The notes beneath the pieces were generated by a model. That model was not told the origin of the DNA and made no database searches. It saw nothing but the letters and a program-made list of their open reading frames with translations. Shown in pieces: positions 26,327-42,106 of a stretch of 44,776 bases of DNA. This stretch comes from a virus. The position numbers were made by a program, and so were the translations under genes. The stretch spans positions 1-44,776 of the IMG/VR virus record IMGVR_UViG_3300034064_001081; one strand, given 5' to 3'. Positions within the stretch are counted from its first letter, which is position 1. Every line of letters begins with the position of its first letter.

Positions 26327-27280
26327 ATGTCAGATGAAAAAAACATGTCGGAAGAGGATTACCTAAGAAAACATTTAGAAGGTATTGAATCAAACAATGG
26401 GACTTTAATGAATTCCGATATTCCGGTTAATGATAATAATGGATTTGAAAATATTAATAATAGACTATCTGATTCGGAATTTTTTAATTATTCAACTAAA
26501 GATTTACCTTGTGGTAAACATTATCCAGAAGGAACTTTGATTATGATTAGACCAGCAAAAACTATTGAGATTCAAGATTATTCTATGGTTGATGATAATA
26601 ATTTTTATGATATCGTGGAAAAAATGAATCATATGTTACAATCTTGTGTCCGAGTTAAATATCCAGGTGGTAAAATGGGTACTTATTTAGATATTAAAGA
26701 TCAAGATAGATTGTTTATTATATTTTTGATTAGAGAACTTACTTTTCAAAATGGAAAATCATTAAGTATAAATTCTAATTGTCCTTCTTGTAAAGTAAAA
26801 AATGTTATTGAAATAGGTACTAAAAGTTTTGTGTTTCATCCTATCGATAAAAAAATTGAATCTCACTTCGATAATTCTAGTAGAACCTATAAATTCGAAT
26901 TAACCAATAATATGAAGTATGAATTGTCTACTCCCAATATCGGTATTCAAAAATGTTTTACTGATTTTATTATAAAAGAAAATTCAGAGGACAGAAAACC
27001 AAACGTTTCTTTTTTAAAAATTATTCCATTTATGTTACCGAATAGAAATTCTATTAGTGAAGAAGGAATAAAAGCTAAATTAGAAGAGTTTCAAAAAATG
27101 GATGATATTTCTTTTCAATTTTTAAACAATGTTGTTGGTAAAATGACTTTTGGTATTAAAGAATTGAGTAAAAATTGTGATTCGTGTGGTACGGAGATCC
27201 ACACTAAGATGAGCTTTCCCAACGGAGCGTCAGGTATTTTCGTTGTTCATGATGCCTTTGACCTTTATATTAAAAAATAA
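26327..27280 (+). CDS. T4 baseplate-hub-assembly-like protein with two Cys pairs
   Basis: 317 residues. After a disordered N-terminus comes LPCGKHYPEGTLIMIRPAKT, EIQDYSMVDD and a helix ending MLQSCVRVKYPGG, matching the pattern of the T4-type hub assembly family (gp26-related: L-P-S-x-G-x-x-Y...I-x-x-R). Two CxxC pairs, C152-C155 (NCPSCK) and C284-C287 (NCDSCG), probably bind one zinc. Such proteins help build the baseplate hub or act as tail-assembly chaperones. The stop AAA-AAA-TAA-A is followed, in the +1 frame, by an open frame continuing the family-like C-terminal helix (see the 27321 entry). Confidence 0.65.
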   Translation: MSDEKNMSEEDYLRKHLEGIESNNGTLMNSDIPVNDNNGFENINNRLSDSEFFNYSTKDLPCGKHYPEGTLIMIRPAKTIEIQDYSMVDDNNFYDIVEKMNHMLQSCVRVKYPGGKMGTYLDIKDQDRLFIIFLIRELTFQNGKSLSINSNCPSCKVKNVIEIGTKSFVFHPIDKKIESHFDNSSRTYKFELTNNMKYELSTPNIGIQKCFTDFIIKENSEDRKPNVSFLKIIPFMLPNRNSISEEGIKAKLEEFQKMDDISFQFLNNVVGKMTFGIKELSKNCDSCGTEIHTKMSFPNGASGIFVVHDAFDLYIKK

Positions 27281-28272: not shown

Positions 28273-29010
28273 TTATCGATCAAATATTTCGAATAAGTTT
28301 ATATTAGGTGATATAGGTACTAGTTCGTTTTTGTATTTTAGGTTATATTTTTTAATAGATTTTATTTGATCTATTGCTTGTTTTAATTTTTCAGATTCTT
28401 TTTTATCTATATCATAATTAAATATTTGAATCAAATTTATAATTTCTTCAACTGTTAAGGAAGATTTGTCCTTTAAAACGTATAAAAAATCATAACTATA
28501 ATATTCATAATCTTCCGAACCTTTTGTATTGGATATAGAAGATAAAAGATCTGTTAAATCTTCTTCCACTCCTGTTGTTGGTGGGGTTAATTTATAACCA
28601 TTTATTTCAAAACATTTTAATTCTGGGTTATATCGTTCTAAAACTTTTTCATCATTGAAATAATCAAACGTGTCTTGATTCATATCAATAGTTTCTCCAT
28701 TTTTTAGATCTAATTTTAATTCTTTACCGGTTGTGAATTTACATATTTCTAAAAAAATAAAAAATAAATCAATACTCATTATATCTCTATAACAATATTT
28801 TTTATTAAAACTAGAATTATCGATTATAACTCTAGTTATTGTTTTAACCAATTCGGTTAAACTATCTGTTTCTAATTGGGTTTTATATTCTTCGATATAA
28901 CTTTTATTACATTTTTTGATATAAATTTCGAAATTATCTGGATAAAACAATCCCATCGATGGTAGATGTTTTAGATTTAACTTTTTCTTTGATTTAAATA
29001 GATTTATCAT
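28273..29010 (-). CDS. Hub-assembly/baseplate-like protein
   Basis: 245 residues. The start LKHLPSMGLFYPDNFEIYIK has the L-P-S-x-G-x-x-Y-P pattern also seen in the 26327 protein and in T4 gp26-type hub proteins. A helix follows (SLTELVKTITRVI), then YRDIMSIDLFFIFLEICKFT, aligning in order with the DRLFIIFLIRELTF helix of the other protein. Zinc-pair cysteines are absent. The C-terminal third is helical and Lys-rich. It sits directly upstream of the tail tube gene on the same strand. A baseplate or tail-assembly role is likely; the exact T4 equivalent is uncertain. Confidence 0.55.
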   Translation of the reverse strand: MINLFKSKKKLNLKHLPSMGLFYPDNFEIYIKKCNKSYIEEYKTQLETDSLTELVKTITRVIIDNSSFNKKYCYRDIMSIDLFFIFLEICKFTTGKELKLDLKNGETIDMNQDTFDYFNDEKVLERYNPELKCFEINGYKLTPPTTGVEEDLTDLLSSISNTKGSEDYEYYSYDFLYVLKDKSSLTVEEIINLIQIFNYDIDKKESEKLKQAIDQIKSIKKYNLKYKNELVPISPNINLFEIFDR

Positions 29011-29508: not shown

Positions 29509-29521
29509 TTTTAATATATAA
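29509..29521 (+). promoter_or_regulatory. Phage-type promoter for fibre cassette 1
   Basis: TTTTAATATATAA, 21 bases before the ATG at 29543. It probably drives the fibre gene and the five coupled LRR-like genes behind it. Confidence 0.5.
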
Positions 29522-29542: not shown

Positions 29543-31060
29543 ATGTCATTAACTTTTAGCATAAACTTAGATACTATAACAGAATCGACTAGATTAGAAT
29601 CGATTTATCCGGTCCTTAATAAATTACCGAATAACTCGGCTAAATTAATATCACCTCGTGATGTAAGAGATGCTTTTTTAACTGCTTATTCAAATTCCAT
29701 ATTTAAAGTAACCACTTCTAATACTGGAACAATACCTTATATTGGTATAGATACTAATAATCCAACGAATAAAGATTATAAAAGAAAAATTTTATTAGGT
29801 AAAAGATCATTTGGTTCATTAGATATAATGACACCATCTTTATTAAGTTCTGATACTGATATATTCTTTTACAATACGAAATCTGATAGTTTAGATCAAT
29901 CATCTACTAAATTAACTATATTAGCGGGTACTAATTCTAATTATTATCCCACTGCTCCTTATATAGAATCTAAATTTGATGTAGATCAAATAAAATTTAA
30001 TATAACTAATCCATTAGGTAATTTAGATATTAATTCTATTACTGGTAGAGTTTCGATTAATAATATAAACTTCCCTACGGTTAGTGAAACTACTAATGAT
30101 GTAGCAGATGGTAAAGTATTAAGATATGTTGGAACATATCCAACTGGTAAATTAGAATGGGTTTATCCTTCGGTTACACAAATTACTATTGGAACAACTG
30201 CTAGTACTACTAATATTTTTGGATCTCCTGTTTTATTGAATGGTTATAATTTAGAATTTGTGGAAGATGAACTTGTTCCTAAGACAATTGGTGGGGTTTT
30301 GATTGGATCTTCTTTTTCATCTGGTTCATTTAATGGACAAGATTGGCCTTTATCAGAGGTTATTAGAAAATTATTATATCCTTATGTTCCACCTGAATTA
30401 AATATATCGGTTAGTAATTTGACTACAAATGGTGGTATCTATGCTGAGGTGGGTGTAACATCTTCTATACGAGTAGATTATGATATAACAAGATATTCAT
30501 TAGATATTGATACATATAAAATAGAACATACTACTCAAATAGTTACTGGTAGTTATAGTGGATTACCGGGAACGGGAGTGTCATCGGATACTACTATTAA
30601 TTTATTTAAAAGTGCTACAGGTTCGGTTGATTTTGTTTTATCTGCTCGTGAAGTTGGTAGTATTGGTTTTTCACATAGTGCAACTGCTTCGATTGAATTT
30701 GTACATCCTATTTATTATGGGTTTAGTGGTTCGACTTTTTCAACATCTGTTGGTTTAGATAATTTTGTGTCCGATTCAAATACTAAAAAATTGATCAAAC
30801 CGTATGGTACTCAATCGTATTATGATGTTGATTTCGATGGAACTGGGTATATGTATATAGCTTATCCATTTAATGATATTATTAGTGAGATAAAAGATCC
30901 AAATAGTTTTATAGTACATGATGAAAATTCGTTTAGTATATCATCGTTTACATATTCTACTATATTTAGAACTGTTCCATCTCTATTACAATATAAAGTT
31001 TGGAGAACCAAGTTTGATACTTCTTGGGATGGACCATCTACTTTTAAATTTAAATTTTAA
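29543..31060 (+). CDS. Tail fibre/adhesin-like protein, cassette 1
   Basis: 505 residues, beta-rich and high in Ser, Thr, Gly and Asn, as expected of a fibre. The first 170 residues are clearly paralogous to the 34029 product: AKLISPRDVRDAF versus SKLITPRSIRDAV, YIGIDTNNP versus YIGIDTLNP, and LLSSDTDIFFYNTKSDS versus LLSSDSDIFFYNTKSDS. This shared part is probably the virion-attachment end; the C-terminal ~200 residues differ and may bind receptors (ending WDGPSTFKFKF). Its stop is two bases before the first LRR-like gene, so fibre and LRR genes form one operon. Confidence 0.7.
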   Translation: MSLTFSINLDTITESTRLESIYPVLNKLPNNSAKLISPRDVRDAFLTAYSNSIFKVTTSNTGTIPYIGIDTNNPTNKDYKRKILLGKRSFGSLDIMTPSLLSSDTDIFFYNTKSDSLDQSSTKLTILAGTNSNYYPTAPYIESKFDVDQIKFNITNPLGNLDINSITGRVSINNINFPTVSETTNDVADGKVLRYVGTYPTGKLEWVYPSVTQITIGTTASTTNIFGSPVLLNGYNLEFVEDELVPKTIGGVLIGSSFSSGSFNGQDWPLSEVIRKLLYPYVPPELNISVSNLTTNGGIYAEVGVTSSIRVDYDITRYSLDIDTYKIEHTTQIVTGSYSGLPGTGVSSDTTINLFKSATGSVDFVLSAREVGSIGFSHSATASIEFVHPIYYGFSGSTFSTSVGLDNFVSDSNTKKLIKPYGTQSYYDVDFDGTGYMYIAYPFNDIISEIKDPNSFIVHDENSFSISSFTYSTIFRTVPSLLQYKVWRTKFDTSWDGPSTFKFKF

Positions 31061-31062
31061 CC

Positions 31063-31653
31063 ATGTCAATAGATGAAATTTGCGAAAAATATCAAATAAA
31101 AAATTATACCATTAATGACGATGGAACAATTGATGTTGATGGTGGGGTTGGTTTTAGTGGATATGGTTTAGAAGAACTTCCACTTAATTTTAATAGAGTA
31201 ACTGGGTTTTTTGTGTGTGATGATAACCAATTAACTACGTTAAAGGGAAGTCCTAGATGGGTTGGTGGTTGGTTTGATTGTGACGATAATTATTTATCTA
31301 GTTTAGAATTTGGACCAGAATATGTAGGTAATGATTTTAAATGTACTGAAAATAAATTAACTGATTTATTCGGTTCTCCGAAATATATCGGTGGTTATTT
31401 CACTTGTTCTAGAAATGAAAATTTGATCGATTCTAAGTGGTGTACAGATAGAATGTATGGTCGTTTTTATTGTAACTATACTCCATTATCTTCTATATTT
31501 AATAATGTAGATCGACATTTTCTACATGCTTTTAATTTTTATAAAATTATAAAAGAAGATACTGTTAATTTAAAAAGGTTAAAATATGTAATGGATTTAT
31601 ATGATCAACCAATTGATTTAGATGAGATACAAAAATATTATAGAATAGTATGA
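31063..31653 (+). CDS. LRR-like protein 1 (cassette 1)
   Basis: 196 residues. All nine members of this family share the same plan. A ~30-residue head contains IDEICEKY, NYTINDDGTIDVDG. A stack of ~21-residue leucine-rich-like repeats follows, of form L-T-x-L-x-G-S-P-x-x-V-G-G-x-F-x-C-x-x-N. The ~45-residue tail is nearly constant (FFLHAFNFYKIIKEDTVNLK, then RLKYVMDLYD). This member has five repeat-like units; the last (WCTDRMYGRFYCNY) is the most divergent, and it alone starts MS rather than MT. The stop overlaps the next start (ATGA). Confidence 0.75.
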   Translation: MSIDEICEKYQIKNYTINDDGTIDVDGGVGFSGYGLEELPLNFNRVTGFFVCDDNQLTTLKGSPRWVGGWFDCDDNYLSSLEFGPEYVGNDFKCTENKLTDLFGSPKYIGGYFTCSRNENLIDSKWCTDRMYGRFYCNYTPLSSIFNNVDRHFLHAFNFYKIIKEDTVNLKRLKYVMDLYDQPIDLDEIQKYYRIV

Positions 31654-32240
31654 CAATAGATGAGATTTGTGAAAAATATGAAATAGAAAACTATACCGTT
31701 AATGATGATGGAACGATTGATGTTAATGGTAATGTTGATTTGGATAGAAAATATCTAACTGAACTTCCACTTAATTTTAATAGAGTAACTGGATTTTTTA
31801 CGTGTACCCATAACCAATTAACTACATTAAAAGGTTCTCCTAGATGGGTAGGTGGTAGTTTTTTTTGTGGTGTGAATAAATTAACTAGTTTAGAGTTTAG
31901 CCCCGATTATGTTGGTGTGGACTTTAGTTGTAGAGAAAATGATTTAACTGATTTAGTAGGATCACCCAAAGAAACGGGTAGTTATTTTAATTGTGCTGGT
32001 AATCAAAATTTAACCAATCCTAAAGGTGCTTCTGAAAAAATAGGTAAGTATTTTTATTGTGTCAACACTCCACTAGAATATATATTCAATAATGTAGATA
32101 GAAATTTTCTACATGCTTTTAATTTTTATAAAATTATAAAAGAAGATATTGTTAATTTAAAAAGGTTAAAATACGTAATGAATTTATATGGTCAACGAAT
32201 TGATTTGGATATGATACAAAAATATTATAGAATAGTATGA
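31650..32240 (+). CDS. LRR-like protein 2 (cassette 1)
   Basis: 196 residues, five repeat-like units. The variable part reads CTHNQLTTLKGSPRWVGGSF, FCGVNKLTSLEFSPDYVGVD, FSCRENDLTDLVGSPKETGS. The tail has small changes (NLYGQRIDLDMIQ). It overlaps both neighbours by four bases (ATGA), so the array is translated as a coupled series. No signal peptide, so the product is cytoplasmic or assembled into the virion. Function unknown. Confidence 0.75.
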   Translation: MTIDEICEKYEIENYTVNDDGTIDVNGNVDLDRKYLTELPLNFNRVTGFFTCTHNQLTTLKGSPRWVGGSFFCGVNKLTSLEFSPDYVGVDFSCRENDLTDLVGSPKETGSYFNCAGNQNLTNPKGASEKIGKYFYCVNTPLEYIFNNVDRNFLHAFNFYKIIKEDIVNLKRLKYVMNLYGQRIDLDMIQKYYRIV

Positions 32241-32827
32241 CAATAGAACAGATTTGTAGAAAATATAACATAACTAATTATACGATCAATGATGATGGAT
32301 CAATTGATGTTAATGGTGGTGTTCATTTATCATCTAAAGGATTAACTGAACTTCCACTTGTTTTTAATAAAGTGAGTGGTCATTTTTATTTTGATAATAA
32401 TAAATTAACTACATTAAAAGGTTCTCCTAAATGGGTCGGTGGTTATTTTTATTGTGATTTTAATGATTTAACATCTTTAGAGTTTAGTCCTGATTATGTA
32501 GGTGGTAGTTTTGGATGTACAGATAATGATTTAACTGATTTAGTCGGATCACCAAAAGAAGTTGGTGGTTATTTTTATTGTGCAAGTAATCAAAATTTAC
32601 TAAATCCAAAGGGTTATTCTGAAAAAATAGGTAAAAGGTTAGTTTGTCCCGATACACCATTGGGTTCTATATTTGATGATGTGGATAGGTTTTTTCTACA
32701 TGCTTTTAATTTTTATAAAATTATAAAAGAAGATACTGTTAATTTAAAAAGGTTAAAATATGTAATGGATTTATATGATCAACCAATTGATTTGGATAAA
32801 ATAAAAGAATATTATAGAATAGTATGA
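32237..32827 (+). CDS. LRR-like protein 3 (cassette 1)
   Basis: 196 residues. The first repeat has FYFDNNKLTTLKGSPKWVGG, lacking the usual Cys (Y-F-D instead of x-C-x). From 32433 to 32718 its DNA is nearly identical to the same part of member 5, covering three repeats and the start of the constant tail. It includes KGYSEKIGKRLVCPDTPLGS, found only in these two. Coupled by ATGA overlaps on both sides. Confidence 0.75.
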   Translation: MTIEQICRKYNITNYTINDDGSIDVNGGVHLSSKGLTELPLVFNKVSGHFYFDNNKLTTLKGSPKWVGGYFYCDFNDLTSLEFSPDYVGGSFGCTDNDLTDLVGSPKEVGGYFYCASNQNLLNPKGYSEKIGKRLVCPDTPLGSIFDDVDRFFLHAFNFYKIIKEDTVNLKRLKYVMDLYDQPIDLDKIKEYYRIV

Positions 32828-33414
32828 CAATAGATGAAATTTGTAGAAAATATGACATAACTAATTATACTATTAATCCAGATGGATCAATCGATGTTAA
32901 TGGAAATGTTGATTTATATAATAGAGGATTGGTTGAACTTCCATTGAGATTTAATAGAGTCTATGGTGATTTTCGATGTACTAACAACTATTTAACTATA
33001 CTAGAAGGTTCTCCAAAATGGGTAGAAGGTGATTTTAGTTGTAGTGGTAATCGATTAACTAGTTTAGAGTTTAGTCCTGATTATGTTGGTGGTGATTATG
33101 GTACTATACGTAATGATTTAACTGATTTGGTTGGATCTCCAAAGGAAGTTGGTGGTAATTTTTATTGTGCTAATAGTGAACTATTAAATAATCCAAAGGG
33201 ATGTACTGAAAAAATAGGTAAAGAATTAAAATGTGACTACACTCCACTGAGTTCTATATTTAATAACGTAGATCAATTTTTTTTACACGCTTTTAATTTT
33301 TATAAAATTATAAAAGACGATACTGTTAATTTAAAACGTTTAAAATATGTAATGGATTTATATGATAAACCAATAGATTTAGATAAGATACAAAAATATT
33401 ATAGATTAGTATGA
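32824..33414 (+). CDS. LRR-like protein 4 (cassette 1)
   Basis: 196 residues. Distinctive features are RVYGDFRCTNNYLTILEGSP in the first repeat and GGDYGTIRNDLTDLVGSPKE in the third, where the repeat Cys is replaced. The tail is constant (FFLHAFNFYKIIKDDTVNLK). ATGA overlaps both neighbours. Confidence 0.75.
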   Translation: MTIDEICRKYDITNYTINPDGSIDVNGNVDLYNRGLVELPLRFNRVYGDFRCTNNYLTILEGSPKWVEGDFSCSGNRLTSLEFSPDYVGGDYGTIRNDLTDLVGSPKEVGGNFYCANSELLNNPKGCTEKIGKELKCDYTPLSSIFNNVDQFFLHAFNFYKIIKDDTVNLKRLKYVMDLYDKPIDLDKIQKYYRLV

Positions 33415-34001
33415 CAATAGATGAAATTTGTAGAAAATATGGTATAACTAATTATACTATCAATGATGATGGATCGATTAATGTTAATGGAAATGTTAGA
33501 TTCTCTGATTTATTAATACCTGAACTTCCTTTAACTTTTAATAAAGTAACTGGTTATTTCGACTGTCAGAACAATAAATTAACTAGTTTAAAAGGAAGTC
33601 CTAGGTGGGTCGGTGGTTATTTTTATTGTGATTTTAATGATTTAACATCTTTAGAGTTTAGTCCGGAATATGTAGGTGGTAGTTTTGGATGTGTCGATAA
33701 TGATTTAACTGATTTAGTCGGATCACCAAAAGAAGTTGGTGGTTATTTTTATTGTGCAAGTAATCAAAATTTGGTAAATCCAAAGGGTTATTCTGAAAAA
33801 ATAGGTAAAAGGTTAGTTTGTCCCGATACACCATTGGGTTCTATATTTGATGATGCGGATAGGTTTTTTCTACATGCTTTTAATTTTTATAAGGTAATTA
33901 AAGATGATACTGTTAATTTAAAACGATTAAAATATGTAATGGATTTATATGATCAACGAATTGATTTAAAATCAATAGAAAGACGATATAAAATAATTTA
34001 A
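33411..34001 (+). CDS. LRR-like protein 5 (cassette 1, last)
   Basis: 196 residues. The first repeat is its own (FSDLLIPELPLTFNKVTGYF); the rest copies member 3. The extreme C-terminus differs from all others (QRIDLKSIERRYKII) and its stop is TAA, not the overlapping TGA, marking the end of the first array. The next fibre gene has its own promoter motif 10 bases on. Confidence 0.75.
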   Translation: MTIDEICRKYGITNYTINDDGSINVNGNVRFSDLLIPELPLTFNKVTGYFDCQNNKLTSLKGSPRWVGGYFYCDFNDLTSLEFSPEYVGGSFGCVDNDLTDLVGSPKEVGGYFYCASNQNLVNPKGYSEKIGKRLVCPDTPLGSIFDDADRFFLHAFNFYKVIKDDTVNLKRLKYVMDLYDQRIDLKSIERRYKII

Positions 34002-34010
34002 TCGATTTAT

Positions 34011-34026
34011 TTTTTTAATATATAAA
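34011..34026 (+). promoter_or_regulatory. Phage-type promoter for fibre cassette 2
   Basis: TTTTTTAATATATAAA ends two bases before the ATG at 34029. A start site 5-7 bases downstream would fall at the start codon itself, implying a leaderless message. Confidence 0.5.
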
Positions 34027-34028
34027 TC

Positions 34029-35435
34029 ATGACTTTTTCGATAAACAATGGAACAGATACTGAATCTAGTTATAAAGAATTTGATGATATATTAAGCGAA
34101 TTATTCGATAATGATTCGAAATTAATTACTCCTAGATCTATAAGAGATGCTGTTTTTTCTACTTATGTAGAACCTGCTTTAAAACCAACTGGATCTTATA
34201 TTGGTATTGATACACTAAATCCATTGGATCGTGATATTAAATCAAAACAATTCTATGGTAAAAGAAGTTATTTATCGAATGATACGATGAGTGATAGTTT
34301 ATTGAGTTCTGATTCTGATATATTTTTTTATAATACTAAATCTGATTCTGATATATCTAATGTTTCTACTAAGATAAGTTTTTTATCTGGAACGGATACA
34401 TCATTATTTGATAATTCTCCTTATATTAAAGTTTCTACATTATCTGGAACTGAATCACAAAGTTATGGTTTTGTTAATTTATCTGATATAAATTTTAATG
34501 GAACAAATGTTAATTTAAACGGTATAACTTTTTCTAGTACTGTTTTTCCAAATCCAGTTCCAACAAATAATGATTTAATGTTTTGGTTAAACGATTCTAT
34601 TGTTTTTAAAGAAATTGAATTAACCCAACCATCTTACATTGGTGCAACCGGTTCTACTTTGAGTTTAGTAAGTGGTAATGTTAGTTTAAATAACTATTCA
34701 TTGGATTTTACTGATTTAACACCACTTCCAAAGACTTGGAATGATAATCTACCAATTGCTTCTATAAATGTCGGAGAATCGTTAAATACTATGTTATATA
34801 AGTTAATATATGAATATTTACCACCATTGGTTAGTTTAGAATTATTACCACCTTATGATAGTGGTTATATAGAATTAGGAATGAATGTATTAATTCCAAT
34901 AAAATATACTATTGTTAAACGAACTAAAAAAGTGGTTTATTTTAACTTAGTTAATTTAATTAGTAGTTCTCAGTTTTGTCCAATCGATCAAGGTGGTTTT
35001 GTAACACAAACCGGAATTGTAAATGGTGTTTTAACTAGTGGATCTACTACTAATGATTTTACATTGATAGTTATTGATGAACACCCAACTACTGTATCAG
35101 ATACGGTTAGTTTAATTGAAATTTTACCTTATTTCCATGGATTTAGTGATAAACCAATGGGTAATGGTATATTATATGATTTAAGTAAAATAATCGAACC
35201 AAATACTAATAAATCTTTAAATATATATGGAAGTGGTGATTATTATTTCATCTATGATTCACAATATGGAGTGTTAAATGAAATATTAGATGGTGATGAT
35301 GTTCCGGTTATTTCTGATACTGGATTGGTTAATCTTAATTCAGTCGAATCTTATTGGGGTCCGAAACAATTTAGATGGTATAAGATTAGTATAGATGAAA
35401 CTAATCTTGGGAAGATTTATAAATTTAATTATTAA
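34029..35435 (+). CDS. Tail fibre/adhesin-like protein, cassette 2
   Basis: 468 residues, paralogue of the 29543 product over the first ~170 residues (MTFSIN start, SKLITPRSIRDA, GKRSYLSNDTMSDSLLSSDS). The middle (LPKTWNDNLPIASINVGESL, NTMLYKLIYEYLPPLVSLEL) aligns in order with PKTIGGVLIG...VIRKLLYPYVPPELNI of the first fibre, so the similarity extends to about residue 280. The distal parts are unrelated. Its stop is one base before the second LRR-like array, repeating the layout of cassette 1. Confidence 0.7.
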   Translation: MTFSINNGTDTESSYKEFDDILSELFDNDSKLITPRSIRDAVFSTYVEPALKPTGSYIGIDTLNPLDRDIKSKQFYGKRSYLSNDTMSDSLLSSDSDIFFYNTKSDSDISNVSTKISFLSGTDTSLFDNSPYIKVSTLSGTESQSYGFVNLSDINFNGTNVNLNGITFSSTVFPNPVPTNNDLMFWLNDSIVFKEIELTQPSYIGATGSTLSLVSGNVSLNNYSLDFTDLTPLPKTWNDNLPIASINVGESLNTMLYKLIYEYLPPLVSLELLPPYDSGYIELGMNVLIPIKYTIVKRTKKVVYFNLVNLISSSQFCPIDQGGFVTQTGIVNGVLTSGSTTNDFTLIVIDEHPTTVSDTVSLIEILPYFHGFSDKPMGNGILYDLSKIIEPNTNKSLNIYGSGDYYFIYDSQYGVLNEILDGDDVPVISDTGLVNLNSVESYWGPKQFRWYKISIDETNLGKIYKFNY

Positions 35436-35436
35436 T

Positions 35437-36027
35437 ATGACAATAGAACAGATTTGTGAAAAATATGAAATAGAAAACTATACCATTAATGATGATGGAA
35501 CGATCGATGTTAATGGTATTGTTAATTTAGATAATATAAAATTAACTGAACTTCCATTGACTTTCAATAAAGTAAGTGGTGATTTTTTTTGTAGATTTAA
35601 TCAATTAACTACATTAAAGGGTTCTCCTAGATGGGTAGGTGGTGATTTTAGTTGTTACGATAACCATTTAACTAGTTTAGAGTTTAGTCCTGATTATGTT
35701 GGTCGTGATTTTGATTGTAATGATAATGATTTAAGTGATTTAGTTGGATCACCTAAACAAGTCGGGAATAGTTTTTATTGTGGTTGTAATAAACAATTAA
35801 ATAATCCAAAGGGTTGTCCTGAAAAAATAGGTAGGACTTTTGCTTGTACCAATACTCCATTATCCTCTATATTTAATTATGTAGATCAATTTTTTCTATA
35901 CACTTTTAATTTTTATAAAATTATAAAAGAAGATACTGTTAATCTAAAACGATTAAAATATGTAATGGATTTATACAATAAACCAATAGATTTAGATAAG
36001 ATACAAAAATATTATAAATTAGTATGA
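35437..36027 (+). CDS. LRR-like protein 6 (cassette 2)
   Basis: 196 residues from the ATG at 35437. An in-frame ATG at 35395 lies inside the fibre gene and is rejected, because all family members start MT/MS-I-(D/E). The repeats include KVSGDFFCRFNQLTTLKGSP and GRDFDCNDNDLSDLVGSPKQ. The tail has FFLYTFNFYK instead of FFLHAFNFYK. The stop overlaps the next start (ATGA). Confidence 0.75.
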   Translation: MTIEQICEKYEIENYTINDDGTIDVNGIVNLDNIKLTELPLTFNKVSGDFFCRFNQLTTLKGSPRWVGGDFSCYDNHLTSLEFSPDYVGRDFDCNDNDLSDLVGSPKQVGNSFYCGCNKQLNNPKGCPEKIGRTFACTNTPLSSIFNYVDQFFLYTFNFYKIIKEDTVNLKRLKYVMDLYNKPIDLDKIQKYYKLV

Positions 36028-36674
36028 CAATAGAACAGATTTGTGAAAAATATCAAATAAAAAATTATACCATTAATGATGATGGAACAATCGATGTTGA
36101 TGGTTATGTTGATTTAATTGACGAGGAATTATTCAAACTTCCATTAACTTTTAATAAAGTAACGGGTTATTTCGATTGTTCTTGGAATCGATTAACTAGT
36201 TTAAAGGGATGTCCAAAATGGGTAGGTACTGATTTTTATTGTCATGATAATAAATTAACTAGTTTAGAATATGATCCGGAATATGTTGGTGGTTCATATA
36301 AATGTAGTTTTAATAAATTAACTACTCTAGAAGGTTGTCCCGAATATATACCGGGTAGTTTTTTTTGTGGACATAATGAATTAACCAGTTTTGAATATTC
36401 TCCTAAACAAATCGATGGTAATTATATGTGTTTAGGTAATAATATTTATAGTTTAGATGGTATAACAGAAAAAATTGGAAAATCGTTTTACTGTAGTGGA
36501 AATCCGATTGGTTCTATATTTGATGATGTAGATCAATTTTTTATACATGCTTTTAATTTTTATAAAATAATTAAATCTGATACGGTTAATTTAAAAAGGT
36601 TAAAATATGTAATGGATTTATATGATAAACCAATAGATTTAGAAGAGATACAAAAATATTATAAATTAGTATGA
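36024..36674 (+). CDS. LRR-like protein 7 (cassette 2)
   Basis: 216 residues, one repeat longer than members 1-6 (six units). It is the most regular LRR stretch: CSWNRLTSLKGCPKWVGTDF, CHDNKLTSLEYDPEYVGGSY, CSFNKLTTLEGCPEYIPGSF, CGHNELTSFEYSPKQIDGNY. The standard tail follows (FFIHAFNFYKIIKSDTVNLK). ATGA-coupled on both sides. Confidence 0.75.
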   Translation: MTIEQICEKYQIKNYTINDDGTIDVDGYVDLIDEELFKLPLTFNKVTGYFDCSWNRLTSLKGCPKWVGTDFYCHDNKLTSLEYDPEYVGGSYKCSFNKLTTLEGCPEYIPGSFFCGHNELTSFEYSPKQIDGNYMCLGNNIYSLDGITEKIGKSFYCSGNPIGSIFDDVDQFFIHAFNFYKIIKSDTVNLKRLKYVMDLYDKPIDLEEIQKYYKLV

Positions 36675-37324
36675 CAATAGATGAAATTTGTAGAGAATAT
36701 AGAATAACTAATTATACCATTAATGATGATGGGACAATCGATGTTGATGGTGATGTTGTTTTATATAAATCGGGATTAAAAGAATTTCCACTTACTTTTA
36801 ATAGAGTCGATGGTGATTTTAGTTGTTCTAAAAATAAATTAACTAGTTTAAAGGGATGTCCGAAATGGGTAGGTGGTGATTTTGATGTAGCAGATAATTC
36901 ATTGACTAATTTAGAAGGGGGTCCTGATTATGTAGGTGGTTATTTTAGTTGTGACAATAACAAATTAACTAGTTTAGAGTTTAGTCCTGATTATGTAGGT
37001 GATTATTTTAATTGTGGAGATAATAATTTAACTGATTTAGTTGGTTCACCTAAAGAAGTTGTGGGTATTTTTTATTGTGGTTTTAATCCAAATTTAATAA
37101 CCTCAAAGGGTTGTTCCGAAAAAATAGGTGGTACGTTTTATTGTCGAGATACCCCCTTGAGTTCTATATTCAATGAAGTAGATCAATTTTTTCTACATGC
37201 TTTTAATTTTTATAAAATCATTAAAGGTGATACGGTTAATTTAAAAAGGTTAAAATATGTAATGGATTTATATGATAAACCAATAGATTTAGAAGAGATA
37301 CAAAAAGATTATAGAATAGTATGA
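36671..37324 (+). CDS. LRR-like protein 8 (cassette 2)
   Basis: 217 residues, six repeat-like units. The second unit lacks the Cys (GGDFDVADNSLTNLEGGPDY). The last unit reads TSKGCSEKIGGTFYCRDTPL before the constant tail. ATGA-coupled on both sides. Confidence 0.75.
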   Translation: MTIDEICREYRITNYTINDDGTIDVDGDVVLYKSGLKEFPLTFNRVDGDFSCSKNKLTSLKGCPKWVGGDFDVADNSLTNLEGGPDYVGGYFSCDNNKLTSLEFSPDYVGDYFNCGDNNLTDLVGSPKEVVGIFYCGFNPNLITSKGCSEKIGGTFYCRDTPLSSIFNEVDQFFLHAFNFYKIIKGDTVNLKRLKYVMDLYDKPIDLEEIQKDYRIV

Positions 37325-38037
37325 CAATAGATGAAATTTGTAGAAAATATGGTATAACTAATTATATCATCAATGATGATGGAACAATTGATGTTAATGG
37401 TAATGTTTGGTTAAACAATAGAGACTTAGTCGAATTTCCATTAACTTTTAATAGAGTCTCTGGTTATTTTAATTGTGGGAGTAACGAATTAACTAGTTTA
37501 AAGGGTTGTCCAAAATGGGTTGGTGGTTATTTTAGTTGTGGTGGTAATCGATTAACAAGTTTAGAGTTTAGTCCTGAATATGTGGGTGATGATTTTAATT
37601 GTAGTTATAATGAACTAACTACATTAAAAGGAAGTTCAACCCATGTAGGTGGTCATTTTAGATGTGGTGATAATCTATTAACCAGTTTAGAGTTTAGTCC
37701 TGATTATATTGAGATGGATTTTTTATGTAATGATAATAGATTAACTAGTTTAGTTGGTTCTCCAAAACACGTAGGTGGTGATTTTGTTTGTAGTGATAAT
37801 GAAGATTTAAATAATATTACTGGATGTACTGAAAAAATAGGCAAGTATTTTTTTTGTAATGATACTCTATTGCATTCAATATTCAATGTAGTGGATAGAC
37901 ATTTTCTATACACTTTTAATTTTTATAAAATTATAAAAGAAGATACTGTTAATTTAAAACGTTTAAAATACGTAATGGATTTATATGATAAACGAATCGA
38001 TTTAGAAGAGATACAAAAATACTACAAAATAATTTAA
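37321..38037 (+). CDS. LRR-like protein 9 (cassette 2, last)
   Basis: 238 residues, the longest member, with seven units including an extra pair (CSYNELTTLKGSSTHVGGHF, CGDNLLTSLEFSPDYIEMDF). Array lengths thus run 196, 216, 217, 238, in steps of about 21 residues, one repeat each. As in member 5, the last gene of the array ends Y-K-I-I with a TAA stop. The antisense frame at 37704-37913 is a shadow. Confidence 0.75.
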   Translation: MTIDEICRKYGITNYIINDDGTIDVNGNVWLNNRDLVEFPLTFNRVSGYFNCGSNELTSLKGCPKWVGGYFSCGGNRLTSLEFSPEYVGDDFNCSYNELTTLKGSSTHVGGHFRCGDNLLTSLEFSPDYIEMDFLCNDNRLTSLVGSPKHVGGDFVCSDNEDLNNITGCTEKIGKYFFCNDTLLHSIFNVVDRHFLYTFNFYKIIKEDTVNLKRLKYVMDLYDKRIDLEEIQKYYKII

Positions 38038-38044
38038 TATATAA
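38033..38044 (+). promoter_or_regulatory. Phage-type promoter for third fibre gene
   Basis: TTTAATATATAA begins inside the stop region of LRR-like gene 9 and ends three bases before the ATG at 38048. Confidence 0.5.
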
Positions 38045-38047
38045 GAT

Positions 38048-39907
38048 ATGATTCAAATAATAAATGGTTTTAAAATAAATTCAGACAATCCTATCGATTC
38101 TAGGATAATAGTTGCGGATGATGCGACTAGATTAGCTATTCAGTACAAATATCATGGTTTACGAGTATGGCAAACCAATACAAACACTCCTTATTTTTGG
38201 GATGGAACTGCTTGGAAAAGTGAATTGGATTTGGTCGTTACCGGAGTGGATGGTGATGTTTCTGTTGGAACTGTTCCTGTTTTTACTAGTTCAAATCCTG
38301 TTAAAATTGGTGATAGTATAATAAGTGTTACTGGTAGTAGAGTTGTTATTGATGGTGATTTAAGTTTCGATTCTATTACAAGTGGTAGTATAGATGCTAG
38401 TTTTATAGATACTGGAACTATGTTGGTTAGTCGATTACAAAAAGGTAATCCTGGACAAGTTTTACAAACCGTTGGAACTGATGTTAAATGGAGAAATTTA
38501 AGTGATTTAACTATTGGTACTTCTACAAATTCTACTAATTCTGAAAAAGTTAAAATTAAACCGGTATCTGGTGTTGATACTGATTATAGATTAGTTTTAA
38601 GACTAAATAGTGGGACAATTGGTGATAATAGTGAATTATTTAGTGATTCTGGGACTGGTGGTTTAATACTTAGATATAGTACTATTAGTGGATTGAGGAT
38701 ATTAGCACATAATGGTAGTTCTGCTAATCCACCTTATTCATTTGATTCAAGTTCCAATACTGGTATGTATAGAATAGATGGTGTTAATTCTGGAATTGGG
38801 TTTAGTGTAAATGGTAATCAAAGAGTTATAATCAATAATTTTGGATTAAAAACAATTTTAGGTAGTGTTGGTTCACCATCATATACTTGGTATGGTGATT
38901 CCACTACTGGTATGTATAGTCCTGGTACTAATCAAATTGGATTTAGTATTGCTGGACAACAAGCAGTTAAAATAACAAGTTCTTATATTAATTTTGGTCT
39001 TTCTTCGACTGGTACTCCAATAATAAAAAATAATAGTGGTAGTGTTGGTTCACCATCATATACTTGGTATGGTGATTCTGATACTGGTATGTATAGACCT
39101 AGTCAAGATGTTATTGGTTTTAGTACAAGTGGAACAGAAAGAGTTAGAATAGATAATTTTGGACGTGTTAAAATAGCAAATACTGATAGTAAGAATACAA
39201 CTGTAAGTATATCGAAAGGAAGTAATACAAATACATTAGAAGTTGATGAATCTGTTTACATTAATGATTCTGTAGTGGCTCTAAATAATAACGTTCAGAT
39301 GGTAAAACCTATACTTACTCAACTTCATATTGCGGACTATATAGAAATTGATACAACTGGATTATCTCCTAATCAATATAAACCTTGGTTTGGATTTGTA
39401 CAAAACGGATACTCCAATCCTGGTGGTTCTAACTTAAGTGAATATTTTTTGACTGAAAATACATTAGAGGAAAATGAAGAATTTTTTATTTTACCCACAA
39501 CTACTACACTTAGTGGACCTAGTGTAACAAATGCTACATTAGATGATGTTAATTATGATCGTGTAATAACTGTTTTTGCAAGACCTGATAGAGCAGTATT
39601 TATGGCGTTGGTGTATATTTATGTTGAGATTGGAATAGGTACTAATCAATATCGTAGATCTGCTTCTCTAATAGATTCTAGAGAATTCTTTACATATACT
39701 AAAAATGGTGGTACATCATATACACCCACTGAAAATCGTACTGGTACTATAAATGGATGTAGTATAAGTACTATTATTCCATCTGGATGTAGATATCTAG
39801 TTGCCTTTGGTGGAGCGAAACAAAACGATTATAACGGTGGTTATACTCAAGTAGGAATAAAGATATTGGAAAGAAAGTTAGGGAGTGGAAATAACGGAAT
39901 AATTTAG
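38048..39907 (+). CDS. Tail fibre protein with GSVGSPSYTWYGDS repeats
   Basis: 619 residues. The start INGFKINSDNPIDSRIIVAD, TRLAI, then LRVWQTNTNTPYFWDGTAW is the attachment-like head common in fibre and virion proteins of T4-like phages of Bacteroidetes and cyanobacteria. The shaft (about 240-390) contains repeats with NTGMYRIDGVNSGIGFSVNG, GSVGSPSYTWYGDSTTGMYS and the same again with SDTGMYRP, a pattern typical of fibre shafts. The C-terminal ~200 residues form a separate globular domain, probably receptor-binding, ending KILERKLGSGNNGII. It is not paralogous to the two cassette fibres and has no LRR-like genes behind it. Confidence 0.8.
   Translation: MIQIINGFKINSDNPIDSRIIVADDATRLAIQYKYHGLRVWQTNTNTPYFWDGTAWKSELDLVVTGVDGDVSVGTVPVFTSSNPVKIGDSIISVTGSRVVIDGDLSFDSITSGSIDASFIDTGTMLVSRLQKGNPGQVLQTVGTDVKWRNLSDLTIGTSTNSTNSEKVKIKPVSGVDTDYRLVLRLNSGTIGDNSELFSDSGTGGLILRYSTISGLRILAHNGSSANPPYSFDSSSNTGMYRIDGVNSGIGFSVNGNQRVIINNFGLKTILGSVGSPSYTWYGDSTTGMYSPGTNQIGFSIAGQQAVKITSSYINFGLSSTGTPIIKNNSGSVGSPSYTWYGDSDTGMYRPSQDVIGFSTSGTERVRIDNFGRVKIANTDSKNTTVSISKGSNTNTLEVDESVYINDSVVALNNNVQMVKPILTQLHIADYIEIDTTGLSPNQYKPWFGFVQNGYSNPGGSNLSEYFLTENTLEENEEFFILPTTTTLSGPSVTNATLDDVNYDRVITVFARPDRAVFMALVYIYVEIGIGTNQYRRSASLIDSREFFTYTKNGGTSYTPTENRTGTINGCSISTIIPSGCRYLVAFGGAKQNDYNGGYTQVGIKILERKLGSGNNGII
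38861..39078 (+). repeat. 41-bp direct repeat in fibre shaft
   Basis: The 41 bases at 38861-38901 recur exactly at 39038-39078 and encode GSVGSPSYTWYGDS. Perfect DNA identity suggests recent duplication or conversion. Confidence 0.85.
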
Positions 39908-39969: not shown

Positions 39970-40281
39970 CTAAACTTGTATAGATTTGAAAAAATCTTTA
40001 AATTCTTTTTCTAATCCTATATATAGATTCCTTTTATTATTCAATTCATCTAATTTAGTCGATTCTATCCAATAGTAGTTTTTATATCTATAATCGTATT
40101 TCTCAGCAGGAACTTCTTCAAATCCGTTCATTCCAATCGCAACTGGAATATAACCTTTTTCTTTGTTCACATGATAATCAGCGGACCAATTTTTAACATC
40201 TGAACTATTTTTAACTGTCCAATTTTTCATATCAGAACTATTTTCAATTTCAAACGATTCGAATTTTTTAATGTTTTTCAT
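39970..40281 (-). CDS. Small hypothetical protein with leader
   Basis: 103 residues. It starts MKNIKKFESFEIENSSDMKN, with an internal near-repeat (SSDMKNWTVKN, SSDVKNWSADY). The remainder is aromatic and charged (YDYRYKNYYWIES). The leader fits the capsid-targeting-like family (FESFE). It lies 15 bases downstream of the next minus-strand gene and is probably cotranscribed with it. Confidence 0.6.
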   Translation of the reverse strand: MKNIKKFESFEIENSSDMKNWTVKNSSDVKNWSADYHVNKEKGYIPVAIGMNGFEEVPAEKYDYRYKNYYWIESTKLDELNNKRNLYIGLEKEFKDFFKSIQV

Positions 40282-40296
40282 ATCTATATTTTTTTT

Positions 40297-40986
40297 TTAC
40301 ACAGGTTCAAACCACCAATTAAAATAAACAAAATTATCATCGATTAGTTTATAATAATCGTTTTTATATTTAACAGTGATTTCGTTTCGATTAGAACGAA
40401 CAATCTCAATAACTATATCTTTGTTCATTTTTAACATATTTCCAGTTTCTCTGGAATAACAAACAACTTCTTTGTTTAGTAATTTATAATTCCCACTTTT
40501 CGGAGTCATCCATTCTTTAATATACTTAACAATAGTTCCTTTTGTTTTAATAACCCATTCAGGAGTTTGTATTAATTCATGATCTTTAAAAACCTCTGAT
40601 TTAACATTTGTATTGCTTCCTGTAATATCACAAACCACCCCCCAATATTCTTTACTTTCTATAATAAAACGAATATAAACATCATAAGAAACTCCGTTTT
40701 TTAAAATTCTTTGTATAGTAAGAGATTGTATATCCTGTTCTTCTAATGCAATCGATGATCTTAATTTATTTAATGTATTTGTCCTAGATAAAGAAAATAA
40801 AATATCATTTACTCTAGCAACTGCATTTGATATAGCACTTTGTTTACTATCATAAGCATTCATTGATAATTGTGGATTATCTACTGGCCATATAGCATTG
40901 GGTGCTGTATCAGGAACCATTCTTTGTAGATTGAATTCCGATGTTTCATTAATTTTCTCGTATTCTTTAAATCTTTTAATTCTCAT
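40297..40986 (-). CDS. Hypothetical protein with leader and INE-T site
   Basis: 229 residues. The leader MRIKRFKEYEKINETSEF contains I-N-E-T, closely matching the I-N-E-N site proposed for the capsid protein, and so is one of the better candidates for a cleaved internal head protein. The body is mixed alpha/beta with YDVYIRFIIESKEYWGVVCD and ends YFNWWFEPV. No catalytic motif. It shares a palindromic promoter motif with the divergent 41018 gene. Confidence 0.6.
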   Translation of the reverse strand: MRIKRFKEYEKINETSEFNLQRMVPDTAPNAIWPVDNPQLSMNAYDSKQSAISNAVARVNDILFSLSRTNTLNKLRSSIALEEQDIQSLTIQRILKNGVSYDVYIRFIIESKEYWGVVCDITGSNTNVKSEVFKDHELIQTPEWVIKTKGTIVKYIKEWMTPKSGNYKLLNKEVVCYSRETGNMLKMNKDIVIEIVRSNRNEITVKYKNDYYKLIDDNFVYFNWWFEPV

Positions 40987-41899: not shown

Positions 41900-42106
41900 A
41901 TGAAGTATTTAAATAATTTCAAAAAGTTTTTTGAATCAGAAGCCCCTTCAAAACCAACTATTAAACCCGGTACTATACCTAAACCTGTTAAACCAGGTAA
42001 AATAGTTAGACCATCTGTTGATCCAGCTCCAAAGGCAGAAGATGTCGCTAAAAGATTTATTGAATTGATGAATAAAAAAGGAGAATCGATTAAAAAATAT
42101 TTATAA
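41900..42106 (+). CDS. Short leader-plus-proline-rich protein
   Basis: 68 residues: leader MKYLNNFKKFFESEAPS, a Pro/Lys/Gly linker (KPGTIPKPVKPGKI), then a short helix (AEDVAKRFIELMNKKGESIK). FFE-S is a possible processing site. This resembles small internal head proteins in which the targeting leader is most of the molecule. The next gene starts five bases after the stop. Confidence 0.65.
   Translation: MKYLNNFKKFFESEAPSKPTIKPGTIPKPVKPGKIVRPSVDPAPKAEDVAKRFIELMNKKGESIKKYL

What the first reader, a model, noticed from the sequence alone, without database searches (positions are those of the whole stretch)
29543..38037. Two repeated cassettes: fibre paralogue plus tandem LRR-like gene array
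Cassette 1 (fibre 29543 plus five LRR-like genes) and cassette 2 (fibre 34029 plus four) have the same order, near-zero spacing and paralogous fibre N-termini, with the last LRR gene of each array ending in TAA and a Y-K-I-I tail. This layout suggests whole-cassette duplication and a functional link between fibre and LRR proteins: fibre caps, chaperones, or alternative receptor-binding modules. I know of no described system with this layout.
Basis: partly seen in the sequence, partly recalled or inferred. Interest (0 to 1): 0.85.

Follow-up and report, generated by a model that had tools for sequence, protein, structure and literature searches.

The report
Leucine-rich-repeat gene arrays between phage fibres
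A huge bacterial virus carries nine related binding-type (leucine-rich-repeat) genes wedged between its tail-fibre genes; they belong to a large, fast-changing family found throughout its relatives' genomes, whose varying residues lie on the binding face, so they look like a diversified set of recognition proteins rather than a duplicated fibre cassette.

Summary
In detail: fibre F1 + five LRR genes, fibre F2 + four, then fibre F3. The explanation changes.

(1) Whole-cassette duplication is refuted. F1-F2-F3 is an old gene cluster. In all 17 distinct relatives with both fibres, F1 and F2 are adjacent with no LRR gene, and F1 and F2 orthologues form separate clades.

(2) The nine LRR genes form one clade that inserted later at both fibre junctions. 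The F2/F3 array looks older, and the F1/F2 array looks derived from it.

(3) They are true LRR proteins (AlphaFold pLDDT 91; internalin/IpaH-type fold; Internalin-J E 3e-16). Their variable residues sit on concave-face positions (22 of 24, against 7 of 70 elsewhere; pN/pS about 1.2 against 0.36).

(4) The family is not tied to fibres. Related phages carry LRR arrays near sheath, portal, protease or terminase genes, and at unrelated places. One 597-kb contig has at least 83 copies in 80 kb. Most copies carry a short N-terminal leader, in many cases resembling the T4 capsid-targeting sequence. The window copies begin just after where it would be.

Best reading: a lineage-wide, diversified repertoire of LRR binders. 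Here a leaderless branch has joined the fibre transcription units. Attachment to fibres is plausible but unproven (about 0.4).

The parts
29513..29521 (+). promoter-like element AATATATAA upstream of F1
   Evidence: AATATATAA upstream of 10 of 39 gene starts vs 0.3 expected in random windows; TATATA 26 of 39 vs 2.6
29543..31060 (+). F1, fibre-like structural protein (505 aa)
   Evidence: conserved in more than 20 relatives as first gene of F1-F2-F3; paralogue of F2; beta-rich C-terminal half, weak fold match to a structural protein of Cellulophaga phage phi12:1
31063..31653 (+). LRR gene A1 (196 aa)
   Evidence: AlphaFold model pLDDT 91, LRR fold
31650..32240 (+). LRR gene A2
32237..32827 (+). 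LRR gene A3
   Evidence: second half 92-99% identical to A5 in DNA
32824..33414 (+). LRR gene A4
   Evidence: pairs with B1 in the tree
33411..34001 (+). LRR gene A5, last of array A (TAA, ..YKII)
34017..34025 (+). promoter-like element AATATATAA upstream of F2, absent in relatives where F1 and F2 are 2-3 bp apart
34029..35435 (+). F2, fibre-like paralogue of F1 (468 aa)
35437..36027 (+). LRR gene B1 (196 aa)
36024..36674 (+). LRR gene B2 (216 aa, one extra repeat)
36671..37324 (+). LRR gene B3 (217 aa, one extra repeat)
37321..38037 (+). LRR gene B4 (238 aa, two extra repeats), last of array B (TAA, ..YKII)
38036..38044 (+). promoter-like element AATATATAA upstream of F3
   Evidence: relatives have TATATA at the same place
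38048..39907 (+). F3, tail-fibre protein (619 aa)
   Evidence: PHROG tail fiber protein E 1e-18; third gene of the conserved cluster

Best explanation
The nine genes are one local clade of a large, rapidly diversifying leucine-rich-repeat family carried by a lineage of huge myoviruses. Each protein is a small LRR solenoid with a constant N-terminal cap and a constant C-terminal helical cap. What varies between copies is the concave beta-sheet face and the number of 21-residue repeats, as expected of a repertoire of binders. Shown: the LRR fold prediction, the variability on concave-face positions, the conserved fibre cluster without LRRs in relatives, the presence of the arrays at both junctions only here, and the wide dispersal of the family in relatives. 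Inferred: an array grew at the F2/F3 junction; a copy with its downstream promoter-like element moved to the F1/F2 junction; as a result F1+A1-5 and F2+B1-4 are two late transcription units, in which LRR proteins are made alongside fibres. Their job is to recognise variable host molecules. Most relatives carry a short N-terminal leader, in many cases like the T4 capsid-targeting sequence, and would ride inside the head. The window copies lack it. I therefore think they most likely act outside the capsid, as interchangeable recognition modules on the tail, probably at the fibres (about 0.4). Next most likely is action in the host cytoplasm (about 0.3).
For: LRR fold. Concave-face hypervariability: 22 of 24 concave positions hold 4 or more residue types vs 7 of 70 others, p 2e-13; pN/pS 1.2 (JC 1.4) vs 0.36 (0.28); same pattern in two other genomes, 84 and 298 repeat units. 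Fibre cluster without LRRs. Separate F1 and F2 clades. Window LRRs one clade, A nested in B. Later insertion. Recombination among copies. Promoter-like elements before F1, F2 and F3 but not before A1 or B1. Dispersed arrays in relatives, at least 83 genes in 80 kb of one contig. LRR arrays beside virion genes elsewhere: protease and capsid (L105), portal (L100), terminase (L114), sheath and baseplate (L119), sheath (L211). Leaders: 186 of 197 N-cap matches have residues before the cap, 11 do not; strict T4-like leader in 42 of 234 LRRs vs 14 of 821 other ORFs vs 5 of 3309 internal Met windows.
Against: F1 and F2 gained no extra domain compared with LRR-less orthologues, and the F1 C-terminus is conserved to the last residue, so no docking site for LRR proteins is visible. 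The bootstrap range of pN/pS on concave sites, 0.93-1.73, includes 1. Array position may only reflect insertion into late-expressed regions. No proteomics exists for any of these phages. The capsid-targeting reading of the leaders rests on sequence similarity only, and most leaders do not meet the strict T4-like pattern.
Confidence: 0.5

Rival explanations
1. Host-directed binders: the LRR proteins act inside the host (counter-defence or host take-over), as T4 internal proteins do, and sit among fibre genes only because this is a late-expressed region that tolerates insertions.
For: Many family members elsewhere have T4-like capsid-targeting leaders and lie beside head genes such as protease, capsid, portal and terminase. 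T-even internal proteins are described as highly diverse defence proteins sharing only a capsid-targeting sequence (PMC3012670). Fibres show no added docking domain. Arrays also lie in non-structural regions.
Against: The nine window copies lack the leader and start right after it, so the capsid route is not available in the known way. Both arrays follow fibre genes with 1-2 bp spacing.
Confidence: 0.3
2. Fibre chaperones or caps: LRR proteins help fold or cap F1 and F2.
For: Tight gene order after each fibre and probable co-transcription.
Against: F1, F2 and F3 are complete and conserved in 17 distinct relatives with no LRR gene nearby, apart from one with an LRR pair beyond F3. A chaperone would not be expected to vary on its binding face nor to exist in many copies.
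Confidence: 0.06
3. Whole-cassette duplication: an ancestral fibre + LRR array unit duplicated to give both cassettes.
For: Same order in both, paralogous fibres, shared array-end features.
Against: Fibre pair predates the arrays; LRR copies diverged less than the phage did from its LRR-less relative L015.
Confidence: 0.03
4. Selfish or neutral tandem amplification: the arrays are by-products of recombination and do little for the phage.
For: Copy number swings widely between relatives; genome-specific clades and gene conversion.
Against: All nine frames are open with constant caps under purifying constraint (pN/pS 0.34-0.43) and change concentrated on one face.
Confidence: 0.08

Closest known systems
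Bacterial LRR proteins of the internalin-J / IpaH / YopM type
   Same: 21-residue repeats with Cys ladder, LRR solenoid (InlJ E 2.9e-16; IpaH7.8 Z 13.1, YopM Z 12.6)
   Different: No secretion or surface-anchor signal and no ligase domain seen; phage-encoded, in multi-copy arrays with their own N- and C-terminal caps
Variable lymphocyte receptors of jawless fish (from general knowledge)
   Same: LRR scaffold with constant caps, variable concave face and variable repeat number
   Different: Diversity here is between germline gene copies; no somatic assembly seen; no homology beyond the LRR fold was tested
T4 internal proteins with capsid-targeting sequence (IPI-IPIII)
   Same: Relatives of the window genes often carry a similar N-terminal leader (L084 MKSYKQFITE vs T4 ipIII MKTYQEFIAE) and lie near head genes
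   Different: Window copies lack the leader; LRR fold rather than IP folds
T-even gp37-gp38 fibre and adhesin pair (from general knowledge)
   Same: A small variable protein encoded right after a fibre gene
   Different: Five or four copies per fibre, LRR fold, and relatives' fibres do without them

Membership tests
LRR proteins (internalin-J-like, 21-residue Cys type) | tandem 21-residue FxCxxNxL repeats forming an LRR solenoid | tested here: met
Huge-phage LRR family (N-cap + LRR + C-cap) | shared N-cap (..IxxICxxYxIxNYTINxDGSIDVDG..) and C-terminal cap | tested here: met
   N-cap matches down to E 4e-28 in other phages; C-cap matches to E 5e-8
T4-type internal (capsid-targeted) proteins | N-terminal capsid-targeting sequence of about 10 residues | tested here: not met
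   window copies start MTIDEIC.., with no leader; relatives have one
T4-type internal (capsid-targeted) proteins | presence inside the mature head and ejection into the host | not testable with these tools
   needs virion proteomics
gp38-type fibre-tip adhesins | physical attachment to the fibre tip | not testable with these tools
   no complex prediction was possible; no new docking domain in F1 or F2
Diversity-generating retroelement targets | reverse transcriptase in the same genome | tested here: not met
   no RVT_1 match in the window record or five LRR-rich relatives; records may be incomplete
VLR-like repertoires | variation concentrated on the LRR concave face | tested here: met
   positions assigned by motif and predicted strands, not from coordinates
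VLR-like repertoires | diversity generated by gene assembly in the individual | not tested
   would need reads from one population

The most novel reading that the evidence does not exclude
Huge phages of this lineage keep a VLR-like arsenal: tens to a hundred LRR binders with constant caps and positively selected concave faces, most of them routed into the capsid by a T4-like leader for delivery into the host. In this phage, a leaderless branch has been rerouted to the tail fibres. One recognition scaffold would thus serve two destinations, chosen by the presence or absence of a short leader.
Probability: 0.25. Interest if true: 0.9.

Novelty: new variant of a known kind. Interest (0 to 1): 0.62.

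Why it matters
Phage LRR proteins are usually annotated one at a time as hypothetical. Here they appear as a lineage-wide multigene family with the variability pattern of a recognition repertoire, reaching at least 83 copies in 80 kb of one contig. If they bind variable host factors, the family is a ready-made panel for finding what huge phages must recognise in their hosts. The leader-plus / leader-minus split makes a direct test of delivery route possible. No paper on such arrays was found in the library searched.

Tried and rejected
Pfam, PHROG and PADLOC gave no usable family for the LRR genes; NCBIfam only weak internalin-J similarity. Whole-cassette duplication rejected. DGR diversification: no reverse transcriptase. 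Fold search of F1 gave no PDB match with E below 0.001 and only weak viral matches, on a model of pLDDT 64, so 'fibre' for F1 and F2 rests on the conserved cluster with F3 and position. Fold search of the LRR model against viral models gave one clear match, unnamed. The B1 ORF extends upstream to 35395 (MKLILGRFINLIIN-MTIEQIC), overlapping the F2 end; it looks leader-like but I take it as chance, as the other eight copies have nothing of the kind.

Full report
Observation. F1 (29543-31060) is followed after 2 bp by five 196-residue LRR genes overlapping each other by 4 bp, then F2 (34029-35435), after 1 bp four more LRR genes of 196-238 residues, then F3 (38048-39907). The last gene of each array ends in TAA with ..YKII; internal copies end in TGA. 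The nine proteins are 60-83% identical. A5 and B4 also share the DNA just after their stop (AAAATAATTTAAT..ATATAA). F1 and F2 are paralogues along most of their length (32% identity). The record is a 44.8-kb virus fragment that also carries portal, head protease and major capsid genes and a tail sheath gene (weak Pfam match in the window gene; orthologue of a sheath gene).

What the proteins are. A profile of the nine matches Internalin-J (3bz5) at E 2.9e-16. The AlphaFold model of A1 has mean pLDDT 91, and its closest solved structures are LRR proteins such as IpaH7.8 (Z 13.1), YopM (Z 12.6) and internalins. The repeat is FxCxxNxL..L...P..V with a period of 21 residues.

Variability. Between copies the scaffold is constant, while the residues at the x positions of FxCxxNxL and the residue before F vary. 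In repeats, 22 of 24 such positions hold four or more residue types against 7 of 70 others (Fisher p 2e-13). pN/pS is 1.2 (1.4 after correction; bootstrap of the raw ratio on the stricter 19-site set 0.93-1.73) there and 0.36 (0.28) in the rest of the repeats. These positions match the concave beta-strand of LRR solenoids; I assign them by motif and predicted strands, not from coordinates. The same pattern holds in two other genomes (84 and 298 repeat units). A3 and A5 share a second half 92-99% identical in DNA while their first parts differ, so copies recombine. No reverse transcriptase was found, which speaks against a diversity-generating retroelement.

Relatives of the fibre cluster. Scans with F2 and then with F1 and two large-phage records, LR745206 and LR756502, gave the same cluster: p29083, F1, F2, F3, p40297 (minus strand), p41018. 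Counting near-duplicates once, 17 relatives have F1 next to F2 (1-41 bp apart) and 8 have a single fibre gene; none has an LRR gene between fibres. In L015 (F1 66-68%, F2 65-67% identical) and L016, F1 and F2 are 2-3 bp apart; both contigs end inside F2, so their F2/F3 junction is unseen. F1 orthologues and F2 orthologues are two clades (100/100 and 98/92). Hence the fibre duplication is old, and whole-cassette duplication is refuted. LRR paralogues differ less at synonymous sites (pS 0.21-0.44) than window and L015 orthologues (0.48-0.53), so the expansion is probably younger than that split, though gene conversion could also lower pS.

Origin of the two arrays. In a tree of 56 LRR proteins the nine window copies are one clade (100/99); B2, B3 and B4 branch off first, and array A together with B1 is nested inside, with moderate support. 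AATATATAA stands before F1, F2 and F3 but not before A1 or B1. The motif lies upstream of 10 of 39 gene starts, against 0.3 expected. In L015 and L016 there is no room for it before F2, whereas relatives have a TATATA element before F3. The simplest account is that an array formed at F2/F3 and a copy with its downstream element inserted at F1/F2. This is inference.

The family at large. A DNA pattern for the repeat found 120 stretches in IMG/VR before stopping at its limit, many with tandem LRR genes. Genomes with F1 orthologues carry LRR genes in other places. The 476-kb contig has a pair at 469 kb while its fibre cluster starts near 103 kb. The 201-kb contig has arrays at 0.04-2, 61-69 and 183-192 kb, with fibres at 121-124 kb; its 12-gene array lies between the sheath gene and the orthologue of window gene 26327. 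The 195-kb contig has a pair 1.6 kb past F3, after p41018, and others elsewhere. The 597-kb contig has 176 profile matches and 83 LRR genes in 101-181 kb, with its F1 orthologue at 462 kb. Each genome's copies form mostly their own clade, the mark of repeated local expansion or concerted evolution. In less related phages LRR genes lie beside protease and capsid (L105), portal (L100), terminase (L114), and sheath and baseplate (L119) genes. Association with virion genes is therefore frequent in this sample but not specific to fibres; I had no background rate to test it against.

Leaders. Of 197 N-cap matches in other phages, 186 have residues before the cap and 11 do not, seven of these in one array of the 182-kb contig (L209). 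Typical leaders are MKYLKLFENFNQ, MKHIKPYKIFES and MKSYKQFITES. T4 ipIII begins MKTYQEFIAE (read from AF158101). A strict T4-like pattern is met by 42 of 234 LRR proteins, 14 of 821 other ORFs and 5 of 3309 internal Met windows; my pattern was chosen after seeing the sequences. In T4 the first 10 residues suffice for capsid targeting, with residues 4 and 7 mattering for targeting and 8 and 10 for processing (PMC9026906), and T-even internal proteins are called a highly diverse set of defence proteins sharing only this sequence (PMC3012670). The window copies begin MTIDEICRKY.. where relatives read MKYLKLFENFNQSEIDEICRKY..: they lack exactly the leader.

How it most likely works. Shown: LRR fold, concave-face variability, arrays at both junctions here and nowhere else in the sampled cluster, dispersal of the family. 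Inferred: co-transcription with fibres, a role in recognising variable host molecules, and action outside the capsid because the leader is missing. Fibre attachment is my leading guess (about 0.4). Against it, F1 and F2 have no domain that LRR-less orthologues lack, and the F1 C-terminus is unchanged. A cytoplasmic host-directed role is the main rival (about 0.3).

Novelty. LRR proteins, phage internal proteins and fibre-adjacent adhesins are each known. A large diversified LRR repertoire in huge phages, with leader-bearing and leaderless branches and with arrays inside a fibre cluster, was not found in the papers searched; the library lacks many subscription journals, so absence there is weak evidence.

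Noticed in passing
L221-L224 (597-kb IMG/VR contig IMGVR_UViG_3300020045_008999, 101-181 kb): At least 83 LRR genes in 80 kb, 176 profile matches in the contig: an extreme multigene family in one phage genome.
   Followed up: partly
window 39970-40281 (-), 40297-40986 (-), 41900-42106 and others; many genes in relatives: Unrelated proteins share a short K-rich aromatic leader (for example MKNIKKFESFEIEN) like the T4 capsid-targeting sequence: 5-20% of starts vs 0.4-3% of internal Met. They may be candidate head-packaged proteins.
   Followed up: partly
window, upstream of most gene starts: TATATA within 45 nt upstream of 26 of 39 gene starts vs 2.6 expected, often as TTTAATATATAA: probably the promoter of this phage lineage.
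   Followed up: partly
L016 2397-4766 (-) and 7094-8320 (+): A relative carries two genes with secretion or lipoprotein-type signal peptides inserted in the tube-fibre region (one directly before F1): the cluster seems a hot spot for insertions.
   Followed up: no
LR756502 97 kb (L012 9161-10489): LRR module fused to a roughly 280-residue N-terminal domain containing a CISRHPYDIAGADTNRKWENCM motif.
   Followed up: no
L209 3423-6587 (182-kb contig): A second leaderless LRR array, with shorter C-termini, next to an 822-aa gene of unknown family.
   Followed up: partly
window 26327-27280 (+) and 28273-29010 (-): Relatives of 28273 also match 26327 (27% identity, E 1e-10), so the two may be distant paralogues in the tail module; function unknown.
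   Followed up: no
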